Virus record (IMG/VR): IMGVR_UViG_3300037070_004396
Coordinates: 1 to 21,799 of that record
Strand: one strand, 5' to 3'
Source of the DNA: a virus
DNA: 21,799 nt
Both the position numbers and the translations under genes were made by a program. Numbering within the stretch: position 1 is the stretch's first letter; each line of letters begins with the position of its first letter. The notes beneath the pieces were generated by a model. The model did no database searches. It had not been told where the DNA came from and worked only from the letters and a program-made list of their open reading frames with translations. This document shows positions 927-8,020 of this stretch, piece after piece.

Positions 927-1054
927 ACCGGGTCGGAGAACGGATGCCGGGCGTGGAGCGACATCGCCGCCCGAAGAACGACCTCGCCGACGACCCAAAT
1001 CGCGCACCCGATCACGGCGCCGAACGCCGGAGGGATCAACCGGTACCGGCTCAC
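923..1054 (-). CDS. Tiny single-pass membrane protein (43 aa)
   Basis: The GTG start at 1054 overlaps the upstream stop (GTGA at 1051-1054), matching the coupling seen across this operon. A longer reading from an ATG at 1135 is possible but would overlap the upstream gene and begins with Arg-rich shadow-like sequence. The protein starts VSRYRLIPPAFGAVIGCAIW and has one hydrophobic segment at about residues 8-31, with a basic N-terminus and the ending HARHPFSDPV. It is the last gene of the late operon. A small membrane protein here could be a lysis accessory, but nothing in the sequence proves this. Confidence 0.5.
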   Translation of the reverse strand: MSRYRLIPPAFGAVIGCAIWVVGEVVLRAAMSLHARHPFSDPV

Positions 1055-1407
1055 GTCAAGATCTGCGACTTCGCAACCGGGATCGAACCCTCGTCGGCGG
1101 CGACCAACCCCGACGGCGACCACACCCGCCACCAATACTGTCCATGCTCCTCGAGGACGATCGTCGTCCGATAGACCGGCCCGGACCCCGGGAAAGTCGC
1201 GCCGTCGCCGTCGACCGCCGGAGTCACATCGACGACCGTCCCGGACACCGGCTTCTTGTATTTCGCGAGGACCGACGCCGGAGCCGTCGTCACGTACTCC
1301 AGCCCGGCGGCTCGGAGGACCGTGTTCTCCTCATCCGTGAACTCCGTGACGATCGTGACCGACTGACCACGGTCGAACTGTCGCCGGGTACCCGTGAGTC
1401 CACTCAT
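1051..1407 (-). CDS. Ig-like beta-sandwich phage protein (118 aa)
   Basis: ATG at 1407 overlaps the stop of the large repeat protein (ATGA). The middle and C-terminus carry alternating beta strands: VSGTVVDVTPAVDG, then YRTTIVLEEHGQYWWRVWSP, then GLVAADEGSIPV. The pattern of a polar strand, 'G-x-Y-x-W/R-W' and a final 'AADEG' resembles small Ig-like domains often encoded next to actinophage tail genes; this is from memory of such proteins, not a search. It probably forms part of, or decorates, the tail tip with the fibre protein encoded just upstream. There is no signal peptide or catalytic motif. Confidence 0.6.
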   Translation of the reverse strand: MSGLTGTRRQFDRGQSVTIVTEFTDEENTVLRAAGLEYVTTAPASVLAKYKKPVSGTVVDVTPAVDGDGATFPGSGPVYRTTIVLEEHGQYWWRVWSPSGLVAADEGSIPVAKSQILT

Positions 1408-3179
1408 GGATCCAACAGTACGACGGACCACGCCTCCGGCCACGCCATCCGAGACGACGCGTCCGGCCACAGAATCGCCGAGAGAGCGGCGCCGAGCTCG
1501 TCCAGGACCACGTTCCCGGAAGCGATCACACCGGGGAACGACACGACGACGAGGACCGGTCCCGGCGACGCCGACCCCCCGGCGGACAACACCGGAACCG
1601 GAAGCGTGACGGCGACCGCGAGGGTCGCCGGAGTCCTCGTCCCACCCGTACCACCCGCCGCCGTCACCGCGGGGAACGTGGTGACGACAGCGAGCGGAGA
1701 CGGCCCGCGCGAACCCCCACCCGACAGCCCCGGAGTCGGTAGGGAGACCGCGACGAGGAGGGATGCCGGCGCCGCCGTCCCCGCGGATCCGCCGGTGGGC
1801 GACGGAGCCGGGAGGGTGACGACGACCGGCATTGTCACCGGAGTCCGCGACCCGCCGCCTGATACGACGAACGCCGGGAAACTGACGGCGACGGCGAGCG
1901 CGGCGGGTGCGGCGGACCCGGCCGACCCGCCCGAAGCGGACACCGCGGGGAACGTGACGGCGGCGGCGAGCGCTACCGGCGCCGGAGACGACCCGGCGTG
2001 TGGCACCACGCCCGGGTCTGTGACCGCTACAGCGATCGGAGACGGCGAAGCGGTACCAGAACCCCCACCGGACGCCGAGACGCCGGGAAACGTCACGGGG
2101 ACCGCAACGGGAGCCGGTGCGGGTGTCGCTCCGGCGTGCGGAACGACCGCCGGGAACGTGACGGGGACCGCGACGGTCGCCGGAGAGGACGAGGCGCCGA
2201 CGGTGACGGTCGGCGCCGGGAGCGTCGTGACGACCTGGAGGACCGCCGGAGCCTTCGACCCTCCCGCCGACGCGACCGGTGCGGGCATCGTCACCGGGAC
2301 CGACAGAACGGCCGGAGCCTTCGACCCTCCAGCGGACAGAGCGGGCGCCGGGAACGTGACCGGCGCGGCGATCGTCGCGGGGAGCGCGATCGCTCCAGCC
2401 CCCGCGGACACCGCGGGGAACGACACACCGGCGACGAAGTTCTCCGGCGCCCGAGTCCCTCCGGCGGACGGCGCCGCCTGAGGAGCGGTCACGGCGACGG
2501 CGAGCGTCGCCGGTGTCGCCGTAGCGCCTCCTCCGCCACCAGCTGCCGCCTTGTAAGCGACGATGACGGAGTCCCAATCGCCGGACCCGGAAGGCGTCGT
2601 CAAGTTCCCCGAGTAGGACCCGGCGGTCGTCGTCGTCCGGTAGCCGGACCCGCCCGAGCATGACGACCCGCCGCCGTTGTAGCCGGTGAAGTCGGAGAGC
2701 GCGCCGCCGCCGGTCGTCGTCGGCGTCCCATTGTCGTTCCAGTCGGTGCCGACCACGACCAGGAGCGCCCCGGCGTCGTCCGTCGTCATCGTCGGATTCA
2801 CGCCCGCCGTCGAAGACGAAGCGGTCCCCGGCGTCCCGGCGAGAGGATCCGCCGTGTCCACACCGGTCAGGACCGCGCAGACGATCGACTGACGACCCTC
2901 CGGCGACGAAGCGAACCCGAGCACCAGCGTCCCGGCGCCGGTCACCGGGACCCGCCACTCCGACGCCTGACCGCCAGTGTTCAGCGTCGCGTTCCGGACC
3001 GGCGTCCCGATCGTCGCCGTCCCGGAGATCTTCGTCGGCGCCGTCGAAATGTCGCCGCCGTTCGCGTTCAGCGAATGAGCGATCGACACAAAGTCATCGA
3101 CGGCGACCGTCATCGACCCCGACGAGATCGCGCCGGAAGCGACAGTGACTCGGGTACCGACGACGCGGGAGATCGCCAT
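1404..3179 (-). CDS. Tail-fibre-like protein with ~15 tandem 22-residue repeats (591 aa)
   Basis: ATG at 3179, three bases after the upstream gene's stop. Residues 1-212 form a beta-rich, Gly/Ser/Thr-rich domain (examples: RVTVASGAISSGSMTVAV, GDWDSVIVAYKAA) of the kind found at the head of phage fibre or receptor-binding proteins. A glycine run (214-218) leads to about 15 repeats of 21-24 residues over 219-555, consensus roughly (S/G)xxPAxLAVxVTFPAPxxSAGG. The last 36 residues (NVVLDELGAALSAILWPDAS and onward) are non-repetitive. The chain is extremely rich in Ala, Val, Pro, Gly, Ser and Thr. Placement at the distal end of the tail genes suggests an elongated virion appendage that binds the host surface. 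No enzyme motif is visible. A role as a secreted adhesin is less likely because there is no signal peptide. Confidence 0.75.
   Translation of the reverse strand: MAISRVVGTRVTVASGAISSGSMTVAVDDFVSIAHSLNANGGDISTAPTKISGTATIGTPVRNATLNTGGQASEWRVPVTGAGTLVLGFASSPEGRQSIVCAVLTGVDTADPLAGTPGTASSSTAGVNPTMTTDDAGALLVVVGTDWNDNGTPTTTGGGALSDFTGYNGGGSSCSGGSGYRTTTTAGSYSGNLTTPSGSGDWDSVIVAYKAAAGGGGGATATPATLAVAVTAPQAAPSAGGTRAPENFVAGVSFPAVSAGAGAIALPATIAAPVTFPAPALSAGGSKAPAVLSVPVTMPAPVASAGGSKAPAVLQVVTTLPAPTVTVGASSSPATVAVPVTFPAVVPHAGATPAPAPVAVPVTFPGVSASGGGSGTASPSPIAVAVTDPGVVPHAGSSPAPVALAAAVTFPAVSASGGSAGSAAPAALAVAVSFPAFVVSGGGSRTPVTMPVVVTLPAPSPTGGSAGTAAPASLLVAVSLPTPGLSGGGSRGPSPLAVVTTFPAVTAAGGTGGTRTPATLAVAVTLPVPVLSAGGSASPGPVLVVVSFPGVIASGNVVLDELGAALSAILWPDASSRMAWPEAWSVVLLDP
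1515..2525 (-). repeat. Tandem repeat tract coding ~15 units of about 67 bp
   Basis: This is the DNA behind the repeats of the fibre-like protein. Unit length varies between about 63 and 72 bases and always keeps frame. Units share a proline start, a four- to six-residue Leu/Val/Ala strand, a (T/S)(F/L/M)P(A/G) core and a Gly/Ser linker. Examples: SKAPAVLSVPVTMPAPVASA and SSSPATVAVPVTFPAVVPHA. Copies are clearly related but none is identical to its neighbour at the protein level, so this is an old or selected expansion rather than a fresh duplication. Confidence 0.8.
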
Positions 3180-3182
3180 CGT

Positions 3183-3587
3183 CTACGCGCCGTTGATCGG
3201 GATCGTCCCGTCCTGAATCCGGGCGTTGATCGTCGCGACCTGAGCGTCGAACCCTCGAGCGGTCATGAACGTCATGAGCCGGGTCAGGTCGGTCATGAGC
3301 CACAGACCGGAGGACTGCTCGGCGGGTGTCGCCTCCGGCCAGTTCTTCAGGTGACGGACACCGCGGGACTGCATCTCGTCCCGGAAGTTGTGGAACGAGT
3401 CGGGAGCGAGCGTCCCATTCGCCCGGAGCCAATGAAACGTGTGGTTCCCGTCCGGGTTGTAGACGCCGTTCAGAGCCGGCCAATCCCGCCAGTTCCCATC
3501 GAACGGAGTGTCCGGACCGCGGGACCATCCGAGCGCCCGCGGCGTCGGAGTGAGCCGGAGCACATACATCACATTGTCGACGGTCAT
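3183..3587 (-). CDS. Hypothetical protein in tail/lysis region (134 aa)
   Basis: ATG at 3587 overlaps the upstream stop (ATGA at 3584-3587); upstream in-frame codons read as Arg/Gly-rich shadow. The protein begins MTVDNVMYVLRLTPTPRALG and is rich in Trp, Asn and Asp in its first half (FDGNWRDWPALNGVYNPDGN). The second half looks helical (FHNFRDEMQSRGVRHL, then MTDLTRLMTFMTARGFDAQV). I recognise no family. It lies between the exported LysM protein and the repeat fibre protein, so a structural or host-surface role is possible but unproven. Confidence 0.65.
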   Translation of the reverse strand: MTVDNVMYVLRLTPTPRALGWSRGPDTPFDGNWRDWPALNGVYNPDGNHTFHWLRANGTLAPDSFHNFRDEMQSRGVRHLKNWPEATPAEQSSGLWLMTDLTRLMTFMTARGFDAQVATINARIQDGTIPINGA

Positions 3588-4870
3588 CCTTCCGTGACCT
3601 CCACGTCGTCCCAATGCCATGTCAGGTGATCGTCCGAAGCGTCGTCACCCTTCGGTGGGTCGTAGTTGTCATCTTGGAACACGACCCGGACATCGCCGTC
3701 CGGGAACTGACCGTCCAGGAGCCACACCCGGGACCCTCCCGGCCGATCCTGTGTCACCCGGATCCCGCCCGCCACTTCCTCCGCGCAATGCCGATACCGG
3801 GTCGCTTCGTCCTGAAGACCGTCCACCGGATCAAAGTCGTAGTCGTACTCCTGAGCGTTCCCGGACGTTCCCGGCGCGACCCACGTGAACGCCGACCCCC
3901 GATAGATCTTCACGCCGAACGTCCCGAAGTGAGGAAAGATCCCGGTGTTCGGCTCCGACGGACCGAACCCCGGCCCACCCATCCCCAGCTGTCCGCCGTA
4001 CTCCTCCGCGTTCTGACGGACGACGAGGACGACGTTCGTCCACTTGCGGGACCCGAGCGACGTCAGGTTCTGCGACCAGCACACCCGCTTGACGTTCGTG
4101 AAGTACCGAGCCGGGGAGAACCACACGATCTGATAGCCGACCGTGTTGATCGACGTCATGACGTGACCCTTAGCCGGGTCGTTCCCCGGCGCGCAGTACC
4201 AGAAGAGTTCCGAGTCCGGAGGTCCCGACTCGGCGCGGAGATGAACGGTGCGGTCGCCGTTCACTCCGGGCGGATCACATCCGGCGTTGTGGTCACCGCG
4301 CCACGTTTCGATCGCCGCCGGGTTCCCGTGCCAATCGAACCCGGACCGTCCGTAGTCGAACCGGGCGAAGAACCCGGCCGACGTTTCGAACGACTCCGAG
4401 AAGGAGCCGCCCGCCGGGAGGGACGAGGTCGTCGAAGTAGCGACGGGTTCCGTCGTAGACGTCGTCGATGTCGGCCCGGTCGTCGTAGAGGTCGGCGGCG
4501 TCGTGGTCGTAGTCGGCGCGTCGGTGCTCGAGGTCGGCGTGATGGTCGTGGTCGGCGGCGATGGTGGGACCTCCGGGACATGCACGATCTCTCCGGGCTG
4601 GAGGACGGCGGCGTCGGATGTGGTGACGGCGACCCGGTTCGCCCGCTGGAGCTTGTCGCCCGCGGTGGAGACCGTCGCGTCGGTCCCGGAGCCGGCGCCG
4701 GTCAACCCGTGCGAGACGGCGACGTTCTGCCACGTGTCGCCCGGGACCGCTTCGTAGTGCGCCGGGTCGACGTCTCCGGCGGAGATCAGTCCGGCGGCGG
4801 ACACTCCGGCGATGGACGCGAACGAGACGACGAGGAGCGACGTGACGACGCGACGCCGGACCGAGATCAT
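3584..4870 (-). CDS. Exported protein: signal/anchor, LysM-like domain, Thr-rich linker, beta-rich C-terminal domain (428 aa)
   Basis: ATG at 4870 overlaps the upstream stop (ATGA). Residues 1-32 are a basic N-terminus plus hydrophobic core (SLLVVSFASIAGVSAAG), a signal peptide or membrane anchor. Residues 39-101 resemble LysM: YEAVPGDTWQNVAVSHGLT, then LQRANRV, then LQPGEIVHVPEV. Residues 102-153 are a low-complexity Thr/Ser/Pro linker. Residues 155-428 form a beta-rich domain with several Trp/Tyr and four Cys (198, 226, 264, 362), ending HLTWHWDDVEVTEG, which recalls a concanavalin/LamG-like jelly roll. LysM domains bind N-acetylglucosamine polymers, so the protein is probably exported and held at the cell wall. 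Lying two genes after the endolysin, it may aid lysis or modify the host envelope. No catalytic residues are assigned. Confidence 0.75.
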   Translation of the reverse strand: MISVRRRVVTSLLVVSFASIAGVSAAGLISAGDVDPAHYEAVPGDTWQNVAVSHGLTGAGSGTDATVSTAGDKLQRANRVAVTTSDAAVLQPGEIVHVPEVPPSPPTTTITPTSSTDAPTTTTTPPTSTTTGPTSTTSTTEPVATSTTSSLPAGGSFSESFETSAGFFARFDYGRSGFDWHGNPAAIETWRGDHNAGCDPPGVNGDRTVHLRAESGPPDSELFWYCAPGNDPAKGHVMTSINTVGYQIVWFSPARYFTNVKRVCWSQNLTSLGSRKWTNVVLVVRQNAEEYGGQLGMGGPGFGPSEPNTGIFPHFGTFGVKIYRGSAFTWVAPGTSGNAQEYDYDFDPVDGLQDEATRYRHCAEEVAGGIRVTQDRPGGSRVWLLDGQFPDGDVRVVFQDDNYDPPKGDDASDDHLTWHWDDVEVTEG

Positions 4871-5160
4871 GCGATGAACGTCCAGACGATCGGGACGTTC
4901 GGGAACACCCATGAGAACGCTCCGTTCCGGCCGGTCGGACCGTAGTAGACGACGCCGTTCGTGCCGACCGCCGCGATGCGACATGATCCGCCGTTCGGCG
5001 AATACGCATACGCGTACATGTAGCCGGTGTGTTTGACGCAATAGGCGGCTTCGACCGTGGCGGGAGCCACGACGTCGGCGACCGCTCCGATGCCGACGCC
5101 GGCCACAGCGAGGGACCCGCACACGGCGAGCCGGCGGACACGATTCTTCATGCTGTTCAT
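4867..5160 (-). CDS. Small secreted protein with signal peptide (97 aa)
   Basis: ATG at 5160 overlaps the endolysin stop (ATGA); another ATG at 5151 would begin MKNRVRR. The basic start (KNRVRR) is followed by a hydrophobic core (LAVCGSLAVAGVGIGAVA) and a likely signal peptidase I site near PATVEAA at about residue 39. The mature part is about 58 residues, rich in Tyr and Gly (CVKHTGYMYAYAYSPNGGSC, then GVVYYGPTGRNGAFSW), with two cysteines at 41 and 60 that could pair. It is sandwiched between the endolysin and the exported LysM protein, all overlapping, so the three are probably made together. Function unknown. Confidence 0.7.
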   Translation of the reverse strand: MNSMKNRVRRLAVCGSLAVAGVGIGAVADVVAPATVEAAYCVKHTGYMYAYAYSPNGGSCRIAAVGTNGVVYYGPTGRNGAFSWVFPNVPIVWTFIA

Positions 5161-5972
5161 CCTGTGAACCCTTCCAGTTGTGCCCACGTCTTCGGTCCGA
5201 CCTGACCGTCCGACGTCAAGCCGAACACGGTTTGAAAGTTGCGGATCGCGGTGTCGGTCGCCTGACCGAAGTCGCCGTCAATCGTCGCCGGTCCACCGGT
5301 GATCAGTTGACAGGCGAACTGTGCCCGCTTCACCATCTTCCCGGTTGACCCGAGCTTCACTGTCGAACGGGTCGCTTCCACTGGATACTCCTTCGTCGGG
5401 GGAACGGGTGTCGGAGGGATCGGGTCGGGAGGGACGGGGACGCCGACATCGGGGAGCGGCCACACCGCGAGCGGAGGGAGGACCGTCGCGAACCGGCGCG
5501 ACGTCGGGATCTCCTTCGGTTGGATGTGCCACGGCTCCGACCCGACCAGCCGGAACGTCCGCAACCCGAACGCCGCACAGTTCGTGACCCGGGTGTCATG
5601 CCGGAAGGGTTGCTCCATCCACGCCCACGACGACGCCGGGACCGTGTCGATCGCGAGAGCGGTCGCCGAGCTCGGGGACACCGGAACGGACTCATGCCAT
5701 GAGTTCCCCGGCTTCGCGAACCCGGGCGGCGGCGGGTTCGGCTGGATCCTCCACCCGGTGCCGACGCCGAGCGGGACGCCTTCCGACGACGCATATTCGA
5801 AGAACGCCCGGACCCGGCGGAGGACCTCCGGGTGGAGCTTGTTCACGGTGATCCGGGTCATCATCTGAGACCACGTCAGATAGACGCCGGTCCCGGCCGG
5901 GTCGCCGGAGTAGCCGAACGGGAAGACTGTGTCGCTCATGGGAACGACCTGGACGAGACGACACGGGGCCAT
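5157..5972 (-). CDS. Endolysin: M15-type peptidase with peptidoglycan-binding domain (271 aa)
   Basis: Cleaves peptide cross-links of the host cell wall at the end of infection. ATG at 5972 has a clear ribosome site six bases upstream (AGAAGGGAG). Residues 15-160 match the D-Ala-D-Ala carboxypeptidase / L-Ala-D-Glu peptidase (M15, VanY-like) fold: probable zinc ligands His93 (NSWHES), Asp109 (LAIDTV) and His149 (EPWHIQ), with Glu146 as the likely catalytic base. Residues about 172-198 are a Pro-rich linker. Residues 203-267 match the three-helix peptidoglycan-binding domain (LGSTGKMVKRAQ, GDFGQATDTAIRNFQ, DGQVGPKTWAQL). There is no signal peptide, so a holin is expected, and candidate membrane proteins lie upstream in the operon. 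Confidence 0.9.
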   Translation of the reverse strand: MAPCRLVQVVPMSDTVFPFGYSGDPAGTGVYLTWSQMMTRITVNKLHPEVLRRVRAFFEYASSEGVPLGVGTGWRIQPNPPPPGFAKPGNSWHESVPVSPSSATALAIDTVPASSWAWMEQPFRHDTRVTNCAAFGLRTFRLVGSEPWHIQPKEIPTSRRFATVLPPLAVWPLPDVGVPVPPDPIPPTPVPPTKEYPVEATRSTVKLGSTGKMVKRAQFACQLITGGPATIDGDFGQATDTAIRNFQTVFGLTSDGQVGPKTWAQLEGFTG

Positions 5973-5988: not shown

Positions 5989-6432
5989 TTACGGAGTGTT
6001 GTCCTCGAGGATCGCGCCGTTCGCGTGGATCGTGACGAGGAGCAACCCGGCCGACGTGGAGACGGCGGTCACGAAGTCGAGCAGATGGTCCAGCGGGTCC
6101 GTCGCCGCCGTGCCGACGTTGAAGTACCAGACGAACGCCATCGCGTTCGCGATGGTCGACGTTGTCCACTGAGGATCGTCGTAGTCGTACTTCAGCGACC
6201 CGGAGACGACCGTGATCTCCGTCCCGGTCACGGTCGCGCCGCCCGCCGTGTACCCGGTCCCGGTCACTTCCGCCGTGATGTCGTTCCGGAAGTCGTGGGT
6301 ATCGAAGTTCGGCGCCTCCGAGTCCGTGACGAGGAGCCCCTTGTGGGTCTCCGCTTCGAACGACTGACCGAGCGTGTCGATCTGCTTCTTCTCTTGTGTC
6401 AGGTTGTAACGCCCGCTCGCGGTGATTGCCAT
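5989..6432 (-). CDS. Probable virion-associated protein (147 aa)
   Basis: ATG at 6432 is four bases after the upstream stop; AAGGG lies about 11 bases ahead. The sequence opens MAITASGRYNLTQEKKQIDT and continues with HKGLLVTDSEAPNFDTHDFR and EVTGTGYTAGGATVTG. I associate this pattern (cargo of 'lvTdseaPNFdtHd..n.vt.EvtGtgYtaGG') with a widespread family of small phage proteins encoded among tail and accessory virion genes; their exact role is not established. It is beta-rich, has no export signal, and contains 'AMAFVWYFNVGT', as expected for a soluble beta-sandwich. Its place between lysis genes is typical of mosaic late regions. Confidence 0.65.
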   Translation of the reverse strand: MAITASGRYNLTQEKKQIDTLGQSFEAETHKGLLVTDSEAPNFDTHDFRNDITAEVTGTGYTAGGATVTGTEITVVSGSLKYDYDDPQWTTSTIANAMAFVWYFNVGTAATDPLDHLLDFVTAVSTSAGLLLVTIHANGAILEDNTP

Positions 6433-6436
6433 CGGT

Positions 6437-6694: not shown

Positions 6695-6943
6695 CTACCT
6701 TCTGCGGATGATGATGGGACGGGGACGGACGACCGCGTGGAGCGCCTCGTCCTCTTCGATCTGCGTCGCGATGCCGGAGTCGTCGGTCGTGATCTTCACG
6801 ACGGTCCCGTTCGGAAGGAGAAGGGTCCGTTCGCCCGGCGTCTTCACGCGCATCCCGCGTCCCCCGGCGTGGATGAACCGTTCCCCGCGGCGAGCGCCGA
6901 ACTTGTGCACGGCGGCGGCGATGAGCCGCTCGGTCGTGATCAT
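6695..6943 (-). CDS. Small hypothetical protein (82 aa)
   Basis: ATG at 6943 overlaps the upstream membrane-protein stop (ATGA); upstream in-frame sequence is Arg-rich shadow. It begins MITTERLIAAAVHKFGARRG. A basic first half is followed by a beta-type stretch (RTLLLPNGTVVKITTDD) and an acidic patch (QIEEDEALHAVVRPRPIIIR). I recognise no family. Its coupling to the preceding gene suggests a linked role but gives no function. Confidence 0.6.
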   Translation of the reverse strand: MITTERLIAAAVHKFGARRGERFIHAGGRGMRVKTPGERTLLLPNGTVVKITTDDSGIATQIEEDEALHAVVRPRPIIIRRR

Positions 6944-7326
6944 CGGATGTCCCGCTTCGTGACGGTCCCGGCTTCGTCGCGGACGATCACCTTCTCCGTC
7001 GGCGGGAGACCGGCGGAGTCCATCGTCTTCTGAACGTTCGCCTCCGGATAGGCGGGCACGGCGCCGAACGCCCGGTCGAACAGGCTGGACGCGAACGGGA
7101 CCCCGGCGACCTGGACGTACCGGATCGCCGCGTTCGTGAGTCCGACGGCGAGAGCCGACACTCCGGCGAAGAGGGTCCCCTTGACGGCGGACAGATCGGG
7201 GACGGCGCCGCCCGACGCCCATTCGACGAGACCGGGGAGAGCCGTGGAGAACACTCCGACGAGGACCACGACGAACGAGATCAGCGCCGTCTTGGCTCCG
7301 GCCTTCAGCGCGTCGAGAGGAGTCAT
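6940..7326 (-). CDS. Membrane protein, probable holin (128 aa)
   Basis: ATG at 7326, three bases after the upstream stop. Two hydrophobic segments are visible: residues about 14-34 (ALISFVVVLVGVFSTALPGL) and 50-70 (GTLFAGVSALAVGLTNAAIR), separated by a short loop with WASGGAVPDLSAVK. The C-terminal 55 residues are soluble (PAYPEANVQKTMDSAGLPPT). The two-helix layout, the 'PDLSAVK' loop and position a few genes ahead of the endolysin fit the actinophage holins I know, but holins are assigned mainly by topology and context. The long soluble tail is longer than in minimal holins. The other two membrane proteins just upstream are rival candidates. Confidence 0.6.
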   Translation of the reverse strand: MTPLDALKAGAKTALISFVVVLVGVFSTALPGLVEWASGGAVPDLSAVKGTLFAGVSALAVGLTNAAIRYVQVAGVPFASSLFDRAFGAVPAYPEANVQKTMDSAGLPPTEKVIVRDEAGTVTKRDIR

Positions 7327-7329
7327 CGG

Positions 7330-7824
7330 TCAGTCATCCGCCGTCGGGGGACGGCGCGGTACGGGAGCCGGCGGGACGGGTTCTGGACCACACTCCGCGA
7401 CTGTACGCGGCGGGTAGTCGGTCTCGAGGTCATGCCGAAGTTGATCAATCAGCGCCGTGAGACCGGCGGACGGGGTCGGACCGGCGACGGCGACGAGTCC
7501 GTCGATGATCGTGGAGAGGATCCCGCGGAGTCCGTCGCGCACGACGACGGCGGCGATGCACGCGTCGAACGCCCGGAGATCGTCTTCGTAGTCCTGTCTC
7601 GCGTTCGCCGCTTCAGCGACGGCGGCGGCGGCGGCGGTCGCCGCTTCGGCGGCTTCGACCTCACGACGCGAATCGGCGCGCTGGTTTATGACGAGACCGA
7701 CCGAAGAGAACGCGACGAGGGTCACACACATCAGTGTCAGAGCGGCGCATATCCGGACCCATCTGATCGGGACCGTCCGTTCGCCGCTCTCTCTCCATCG
7801 TCGTCGTAGATCCCCGAGTGTCAT
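7330..7824 (-). CDS. Single-pass membrane protein with helical stalk, spanin- or holin-accessory-like (164 aa)
   Basis: I place the start at ATG 7824, which has AGAGGA ten bases upstream; a GTG at 7833 has that site almost touching it. One membrane segment lies at about residues 22-46 (WVRICAALTLMCVTLVAFSS) after a basic N-terminus, so N-in/C-out is likely. Residues 48-90 are an Ala/Glu/Arg helix (REVEAAEAATAAAAAVAEAA) like a coiled coil, and the end is Pro-rich (PEPVPPAPVPRRPPTADD). This resembles spanin-type or other lysis accessory proteins in layout only. The first 164 bases overlap the preceding gene in another frame. Confidence 0.6.
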   Translation of the reverse strand: MTLGDLRRRWRESGERTVPIRWVRICAALTLMCVTLVAFSSVGLVINQRADSRREVEAAEAATAAAAAVAEAANARQDYEDDLRAFDACIAAVVVRDGLRGILSTIIDGLVAVAGPTPSAGLTALIDQLRHDLETDYPPRTVAECGPEPVPPAPVPRRPPTADD

Positions 7825-8020
7825 CGTCGTCACGTCCTCTCGTCGTGTCCGGCCGAAGAAGGATCATGCCCATGATCGTTCCGGCGAACCCGAGCACTAG
7901 ACCTACTTGCGGCGAGCCGGAGGCGACGGCGAACGCGACGATCCCTAGGACGACCCACATCGTCCACCACTTCCGATCGTCGTCGCTTCGTCGGCCCCGG
8001 GTCCATCTACCCTTCTCCAT
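7661..8020 (-). CDS. Two-helix membrane protein, alternative holin candidate (119 aa)
   Basis: ATG at 8020, with AGGA about ten bases upstream. The N-terminus is basic (MEKGRWTRGRRSDDDRKWW). Two hydrophobic segments follow at about 21-38 and 39-56 (MWVVLGIVAFAVAS, then VGLVLGFAGTIMGMILL), a tight hairpin like a small two-helix holin. The remaining 60 residues are charged and low in structure and overlap the next gene for 164 bases. That tail looks like out-of-frame sequence, so the true protein may be effectively the first ~58 residues with a run-on end. The membrane hairpin itself looks genuine. Confidence 0.5.
   Translation of the reverse strand: MEKGRWTRGRRSDDDRKWWTMWVVLGIVAFAVASGSPQVGLVLGFAGTIMGMILLRPDTTRGRDDDDTRGSTTTMERERRTDGPDQMGPDMRRSDTDVCDPRRVLFGRSRHKPARRFAS

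What the first reader, a model, noticed from the sequence alone, without database searches (positions are those of the whole stretch)
3584..5160. Two exported proteins, one with LysM, coupled to the endolysin
The endolysin stop overlaps a signal-peptide protein, which overlaps a LysM-containing exported protein with a Thr-rich spacer and a beta-rich end. Phage structural proteins do not normally carry export signals. Exported phage proteins that bind the wall could block superinfection, help lysis from outside the membrane, or coat the cell or debris so that progeny are not lost on it. The domain order (anchor, wall binder, long spacer, outward beta domain) suits a surface-displayed module.
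Basis: partly seen in the sequence, partly recalled or inferred. Interest (0 to 1): 0.6.

Follow-up and report, generated by a model that had tools for sequence, protein, structure and literature searches.

The report
Phage-encoded cell-surface lectin-like protein
This virus of bacteria carries a gene for a protein that the infected cell most likely exports to its own wall, where a sugar-binding-type domain is held outwards; eight other environmental phages carry the same domain, so it may be a way for phages to cloak or trim the surface sugars that phages use to attach.

Summary
Behind the endolysin, coupled by ATGA overlaps at 5157-5160, 4867-4870 and 3584-3587, lie a small signal-peptide protein (97 aa) and a 428-aa exported protein: signal segment, LysM, Thr-rich spacer, 274-aa beta domain. 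Pfam LysM does not call the window protein, but a relative with the same architecture (L083) passes Pfam's cut-off, and its LysM region matches the window's at 53.6 bits (best of 999 shuffles: 9.8). Two AlphaFold models, of modest confidence, place the beta domain in the concanavalin-A/legume-lectin fold (Z 10.8 and 14.3). It has no Pfam, NCBIfam, PADLOC, PHROG or PDB sequence match. Nine phage contigs carry the domain, all with four invariant cysteines; every complete copy has an export-type N-terminus. Anchoring differs: N-terminal LysM, or a C-terminal Thr-rich tail with a two-Cys motif. The carriers do not share the window's capsid protein, and 42 records that do lack the domain: an accessory module, mostly beside tail-tip and lysis genes. 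Best reading: a late, wall-displayed glycan-binding protein that masks surface glycans (superinfection exclusion, fewer progeny lost on debris), working like T5 Llp or Ltp but unrelated to them. The function is inferred; an enzyme is not excluded.

The parts
3584..4870 (-). 428-aa exported LysM / Thr-spacer / lectin-fold protein (P0001)
   Evidence: translation; ATGA overlaps at both ends; homologue with the same architecture in L083, BLASTP 3e-52
4793..4870 (-). N-terminal signal segment (residues 1-26: RRR, hydrophobic core, VSA-AG); cleaved or membrane-retained not decided
   Evidence: Kyte-Doolittle maximum 2.34 at residue 8 after 3 K/R; the seven other complete homologues also start with a basic stretch and a hydrophobic core
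4568..4765 (-). LysM domain with an insertion of about 14 residues (residues ~36-101)
   Evidence: phmmer to the L083 LysM region 53.6 bits, best of 999 shuffles 9.8; L083 passes the Pfam LysM cut-off
4409..4567 (-). Thr/Ser/Pro-rich spacer (residues ~102-154)
   Evidence: sequence; 52% Thr over 40 residues
3587..4408 (-). C-terminal ConA-like/legume-lectin-fold domain (residues 155-428), four Cys conserved in all nine members
   Evidence: AF2 pLDDT 59, pTM 0.70; VIA Z 10.8 to arcelin-1, 160 residues, 3.1 A; homologue model Z 14.3, 188 residues, 3.3 A; alignment A4
4867..5160 (-). small exported protein (97 aa, P0008): signal segment, then about 58 residues with two Cys
   Evidence: no family or homologue found
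5157..5972 (-). endolysin (PG_binding_1 at the C-terminus; N-terminus resembles VanY/DD-peptidase by eye only); ATG at 5972 or 5939
   Evidence: PF01471 2.4e-11; PHROG endolysin families
3183..3587 (-). 134-aa protein, ATGA-coupled behind the LysM protein, unknown
   Evidence: no family match above noise
1404..3179 (-). 591-aa protein with an N-terminal domain and repeats of about 24 residues, fibre-like in appearance
   Evidence: sequence; no family match
1051..1404 (-). about 116-aa protein homologous to the gene at the same relative place in another carrier phage
   Evidence: BLASTP 8e-7 to L085:11389-11691, 6e-4 to L091:5343-5654

Best explanation
A late-expressed phage protein is exported through the Sec route into the envelope of the infected (probably Gram-positive, high-GC) host. 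The LysM holds it on peptidoglycan, the Thr-rich spacer carries the C-terminal ConA-like jelly-roll domain outwards, and that domain binds a surface glycan that phages of this host use for attachment. It thereby masks the receptor on the dying cell and on wall debris, which excludes competitors and keeps released progeny from being lost on lysed envelopes. Shown by sequence: gene order, export-type N-termini, LysM homology, spacer, a nine-member family with four invariant cysteines, and module mobility. Shown by model only: the lectin-type fold. Inferred: glycan binding, masking, late timing, and the host.
For: Export-type N-terminus in the window protein and the seven other complete homologues. 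Four invariant Cys in a domain from otherwise Cys-poor phages. LysM confirmed through the homologue. Legume-lectin fold from two separate models; Foldseek hits include the lectin domain of the staphylococcal surface adhesin Aap. Position between endolysin and repeat-rich tail-end genes in the window, and beside tail or lysis genes in L085, L087, L088, L089 and L093. Different anchoring solutions around the same domain. Precedents: T5 llp lies next to the receptor-binding gene oad, excludes superinfection and presumably spares progeny on debris (PMC4728585); Ltp is built as anchor, Ser-rich spacer, active domain (PMC3952083).
Against: No binding, exclusion or timing data. The ConA-like fold is shared by glycosidases and lyases, and the invariant His, Asp, Lys, Tyr, Arg and Trp residues would also suit an active site. 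A masking lectin might be expected to vary with the receptor, whereas this domain keeps many polar residues invariant. Model confidence is modest (pLDDT 58-59).
Confidence: 0.42

Rival explanations
1. It is an exported, wall-anchored carbohydrate-active enzyme (ConA-fold glycosidase or lyase) that trims capsule, teichoic acid or arabinogalactan during late infection, to release progeny or to help the endolysin from outside the membrane.
For: ConA-like fold shared with GH16-type enzymes, which appear in the Foldseek list; invariant polar residues (GDH/GEH, GHxMT, K, R, DxxY...K, TWHWD) in all nine members; position behind the endolysin in the window and near lysis genes in L089 and L093.
Against: No GH16 ExDxxE-type motif is conserved in A4; no enzyme family in Pfam or NCBIfam; top VIA rows are legume lectins; a long spacer and LysM suit display as well as catalysis.
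Confidence: 0.23
2. It is a superinfection-exclusion protein of another type: the outward domain binds an incoming phage's tail protein or blocks DNA entry (as Ltp does with the tape measure protein) instead of binding a host glycan.
For: Same build as Ltp (anchor, low-complexity spacer, active domain; PMC3952083); C. acnes phage gp41 is an actinophage example of an exported candidate exclusion protein (PMC11480721); CwpV blocks phage from the wall without affecting adsorption (PMC4737114).
Against: The fold is a lectin type, not the HTH repeats of Ltp; Ltp lies in the lysogeny module, this gene among late genes; no lysogeny genes were recognised in the window.
Confidence: 0.15
3. It is a virion or tail-fibre component; the N-terminal hydrophobic segment is a membrane or assembly feature and not an export signal.
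For: The gene sits among tail-end genes in most carriers; ConA/LamG-type domains are common in phage fibres (established knowledge).
Against: Basic, hydrophobic N-termini in all complete homologues; four conserved Cys and Thr-rich spacers; LysM; no precedent known to me of Sec-targeted structural proteins in tailed phages.
Confidence: 0.1
4. It is a host-fitness gene (moron): a surface adhesin that helps infected or lysogenic cells stick to substrates or to each other.
For: Fold similarity to the Aap lectin domain; accessory, mobile distribution.
Against: ATGA-coupled to the endolysin, so probably expressed when the cell is about to die; sits next to tail and lysis genes in unrelated phages.
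Confidence: 0.07

Closest known systems
Llp lipoproteins of T5-like phages
   Same: Exported phage protein that acts on the infected cell's surface; gene next to a receptor-binding gene (oad); blocks the receptor, excluding superinfection and presumably sparing progeny on debris (PMC4728585)
   Different: Llp is a lipoprotein that blocks an outer-membrane protein receptor in Gram-negatives; here a LysM/Thr-spacer protein of over 400 aa with a lectin-type fold
Ltp family superinfection-exclusion lipoproteins (TP-J34)
   Same: Surface anchor, low-complexity (Ser-rich) spacer and an active domain held outside (PMC3952083)
   Different: Lipid anchor, HTH-repeat domain, lysogeny module; here LysM, lectin-type domain, late region
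CwpV of Clostridioides difficile
   Same: Wall-bound surface protein with an outward C-terminal domain that protects against phage (PMC4737114)
   Different: Host-encoded and phase-variable, repeat-containing C-terminal domain, does not affect adsorption
Legume lectins / ConA-like superfamily (arcelin-1 1avb, winged bean lectin 1fay)
   Same: Predicted fold, Z 10.8 and 14.3 over 160-188 residues
   Different: About 5-13% identity, four invariant Cys, no sequence match; sugar- and metal-binding residues not shown

Membership tests
LysM (PF01476) | profile match above the curated cut-off | tested here: inconclusive
   The window protein itself has no match; same-architecture homologue L083 28.6 bits against 20.9, and the two LysM regions match at 53.6 bits against 9.8 for the best shuffle
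LysM (PF01476) | binds peptidoglycan / GlcNAc | not testable with these tools
   needs a wall pull-down
ConA-like lectin/glucanase fold superfamily | two-sheet jelly roll | tested here: met
   predicted models only, pLDDT 58-59: Z 10.8 and Z 14.3
ConA-like lectin/glucanase fold superfamily | carbohydrate binding or hydrolysis | not testable with these tools
   needs glycan binding or activity assays
GH16 glycosidases | conserved ExDxxE-type catalytic motif | tested here: not met
   no such motif is conserved in the nine-member alignment A4
Phage superinfection-exclusion surface proteins (Llp/Ltp type, functional class) | exported to the cell surface | tested here: inconclusive
   sequence only, no predictor or localisation data: signal-like N-termini in all complete members and conserved Cys
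Phage superinfection-exclusion surface proteins (Llp/Ltp type, functional class) | expression reduces adsorption or DNA entry of phage | not testable with these tools
   needs an expression and plating assay
Ltp family | lipobox and HTH-repeat domain | tested here: not met
   no Cys in the window protein's signal segment; C-terminal model is beta
Known anti-phage defence proteins (PADLOC) | profile match | tested here: not met
   no match at E 0.1

The most novel reading that the evidence does not exclude
A so far undescribed, mobile family of phage-encoded surface lectins: one conserved jelly-roll domain displayed on the wall of the infected cell by interchangeable anchors (N-terminal LysM, or a C-terminal Thr-rich tail with a two-Cys motif), carried by unrelated tailed phages to mask or occupy the glycan receptor and protect progeny.
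Probability: 0.35. Interest if true: 0.7.

Novelty: new variant of a known kind. Interest (0 to 1): 0.5.

Why it matters
As far as I know, exported phage proteins that remodel the surface of the infected cell are described mainly from Gram-negative hosts and from lysogeny modules of phages of lactic acid bacteria. A glycan-level, wall-anchored version carried by unrelated environmental phages, in the late region, would widen that class. It would make testable whether phages protect their own progeny from re-binding to polysaccharide receptors on debris, and the domain itself could be a reagent for surface glycans of uncultured high-GC bacteria.

Tried and rejected
Exact-peptide scans of viral and genome contigs with the window protein found no relative; a degenerate motif taken from the C-terminus (DNYxP...WHWD[ND]) opened the family. 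tblastn against INPHARED phages and plasmids: nothing. The phage relatives found by capsid protein do not carry the domain. I tested whether the window's repeat-rich protein (1404-3179) shares its N-terminal domain with the gene after the lectin in L085/L086/L087: not supported. The small exported protein is not detectably related to the one in L089. A lipobox was considered for L096 (LLLSQC), but Gln before the Cys is not canonical, so no lipid anchor is claimed. The BFVD fold search gave only weak, mixed hits to phage, archaeal-virus and other viral proteins. Literature searches for an exported phage protein with a ConA-like lectin domain and superinfection gave none.

Full report
Setting. 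The window is a 21.8-kb virus record with the late region of an HK97-type tailed phage. Terminase, portal, protease, major capsid, major tail and tape-measure proteins are recognised. GC is 67%, and the best terminase matches, about 35% identical, are largely phages of actinobacteria, so the host is probably a Gram-positive, high-GC bacterium, but it is not identified.

The observation. On the - strand the endolysin (5157-5972; PG_binding_1) is followed by three genes joined by four-base ATGA overlaps: a 97-aa protein (4867-5160), a 428-aa protein (3584-4870) and a 134-aa protein (3183-3587). Among 24 window genes only the 97-aa and 428-aa proteins and two holin-like membrane proteins have a strongly hydrophobic N-terminal segment. 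No signal-peptide predictor was available, so export rests on the basic, hydrophobic N-termini, on small-residue sites (VSA-AG; VEA-A) and on conservation.

LysM. Pfam's LysM model does not detect the window protein, even in a search of the window alone. A homologue found later (L083) has the same layout and passes the Pfam cut-off with 28.6 bits. The window's N-terminal region matches the L083 LysM region at 53.6 bits, against 9.8 for the best of 999 shuffles. The window copy has an insertion of about 14 residues that probably explains the miss. The call of LysM is therefore sound by homology, although the family's own cut-off is not met by this sequence.

The family. Searches with the intact protein found nothing in Pfam, NCBIfam, PADLOC, PHROGs (no significant match), PDB sequences or INPHARED; homologues found no match in INPHARED or plasmids either. 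A degenerate DNA motif from the C-terminus gave two viral contigs with clear homologues: L083, BLASTP 3e-52 over the full length, and L084, 2e-55 over the C-terminal domain. Profile scans added L086, L087, L088, L091, L093 and L096, and a last scan added none. That makes eight contigs of 2.9 million plus the window. All nine copies have four invariant cysteines in the domain, and also GDH/GEH, GHxMT, VCW and TWHWD motifs.

Architectures. The window and L083 have signal, LysM, Thr-rich spacer, domain. L084, L086, L087, L088 and L093 have signal, domain, long Thr-rich tail and a C-terminal motif with two cysteines (CPxxF...WC); L091 is the same but cut at its 5' end. L096 has a signal-like start, a short Pro/Thr linker and the domain. 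One domain with different ways of being held outside the cell is what a surface-displayed module would look like.

Context and mobility. In L089 (same contig as L083) the order is endolysin, holin-like protein, a 124-aa protein, a small exported protein that overlaps the LysM-lectin gene, then further large genes; this mirrors the window, although the two small exported proteins are not detectably similar. In L085, L087 and L088 the gene follows tail-end genes; in L093 it follows a 996-aa protein and lies 4.7 kb before an endolysin. The gene at 1051-1404 in the window has a homologue at the same relative place in L085 (8e-7). In none of the eight carrier records was the window's major capsid protein found, while the control record G001 has it, and only one carrier has a weak terminase match; several carrier records are fragments. 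The 42 records chosen for a related capsid protein lack the domain, again with the caveat of fragments. It looks like an accessory module that moves between phage backbones.

Fold. AlphaFold models of the window domain (pLDDT 59, pTM 0.70) and of the L084 domain (pLDDT 58, pTM 0.67) both give a beta sandwich. The fold call is therefore ConA-like; lectin or enzyme cannot be told apart from the fold. No GH16 catalytic motif is conserved in the alignment.

Mechanism. Most likely the protein is made late, exported, held on peptidoglycan by LysM, and presents a glycan-binding domain that masks attachment sites on the cell and on debris. This is what T5 Llp does with a protein receptor: its gene lies next to the receptor-binding gene, and it excludes superinfection and presumably lowers phage loss on debris (PMC4728585). 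The build of anchor, low-complexity spacer and active domain also recalls Ltp (PMC3952083). An exported C. acnes phage protein has been proposed as an exclusion factor in an actinobacterium (PMC11480721), and the host wall protein CwpV shows that a wall-displayed domain can stop phage (PMC4737114). These are working analogies; membership in the Ltp family was tested and not met. Rivals are a wall-anchored glycan-cleaving enzyme, an exclusion protein that targets incoming phage proteins, a virion part and a fitness adhesin.

Limits. There are no expression, binding or virion data; export and timing are inferred; model confidence is modest; host genomes could not be searched with the family profile, so a bacterial origin of the domain is open.

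Noticed in passing
L089:13062-13826 (-): A caspase-like (metacaspase/peptidase C14-like by eye) protein is encoded on the 72-kb phage contig that carries the LysM-lectin gene.
   Followed up: no
L084, L086, L087, L088, L091, L093 (protein C-termini): A short C-terminal motif, CPxxF...WCxxV[NE]A, always ends the Thr-rich tail; found only in these proteins among all loci fetched. Possibly an anchoring or disulfide motif.
   Followed up: partly
window 5157-5972: The endolysin has a recognised wall-binding domain but no recognised catalytic domain; the N-terminus resembles VanY-type peptidases by eye.
   Followed up: no
window 6940-7326 and 7330-7833 (-): Two small membrane proteins before the endolysin, holin candidates without any significant family match.
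   Followed up: no
window 1404-3179 (-): A 591-aa protein made largely of about 24-residue repeats (PAxLxVxVTFPxPxxSAGG); several other carriers also have a repeat-rich protein downstream of the lectin gene.
   Followed up: partly
window 5989-6435 (-) and L087:8881-9324: Both encode a phrog_644 protein (unknown function) near the lysis/tail-end genes.
   Followed up: no
L002:7468-8718 and L088: A contig from sample 3300037071 encodes a major capsid protein identical to the window's, and another carrier of the lectin domain (L088) comes from the same sample, so two carriers may co-occur.
   Followed up: no
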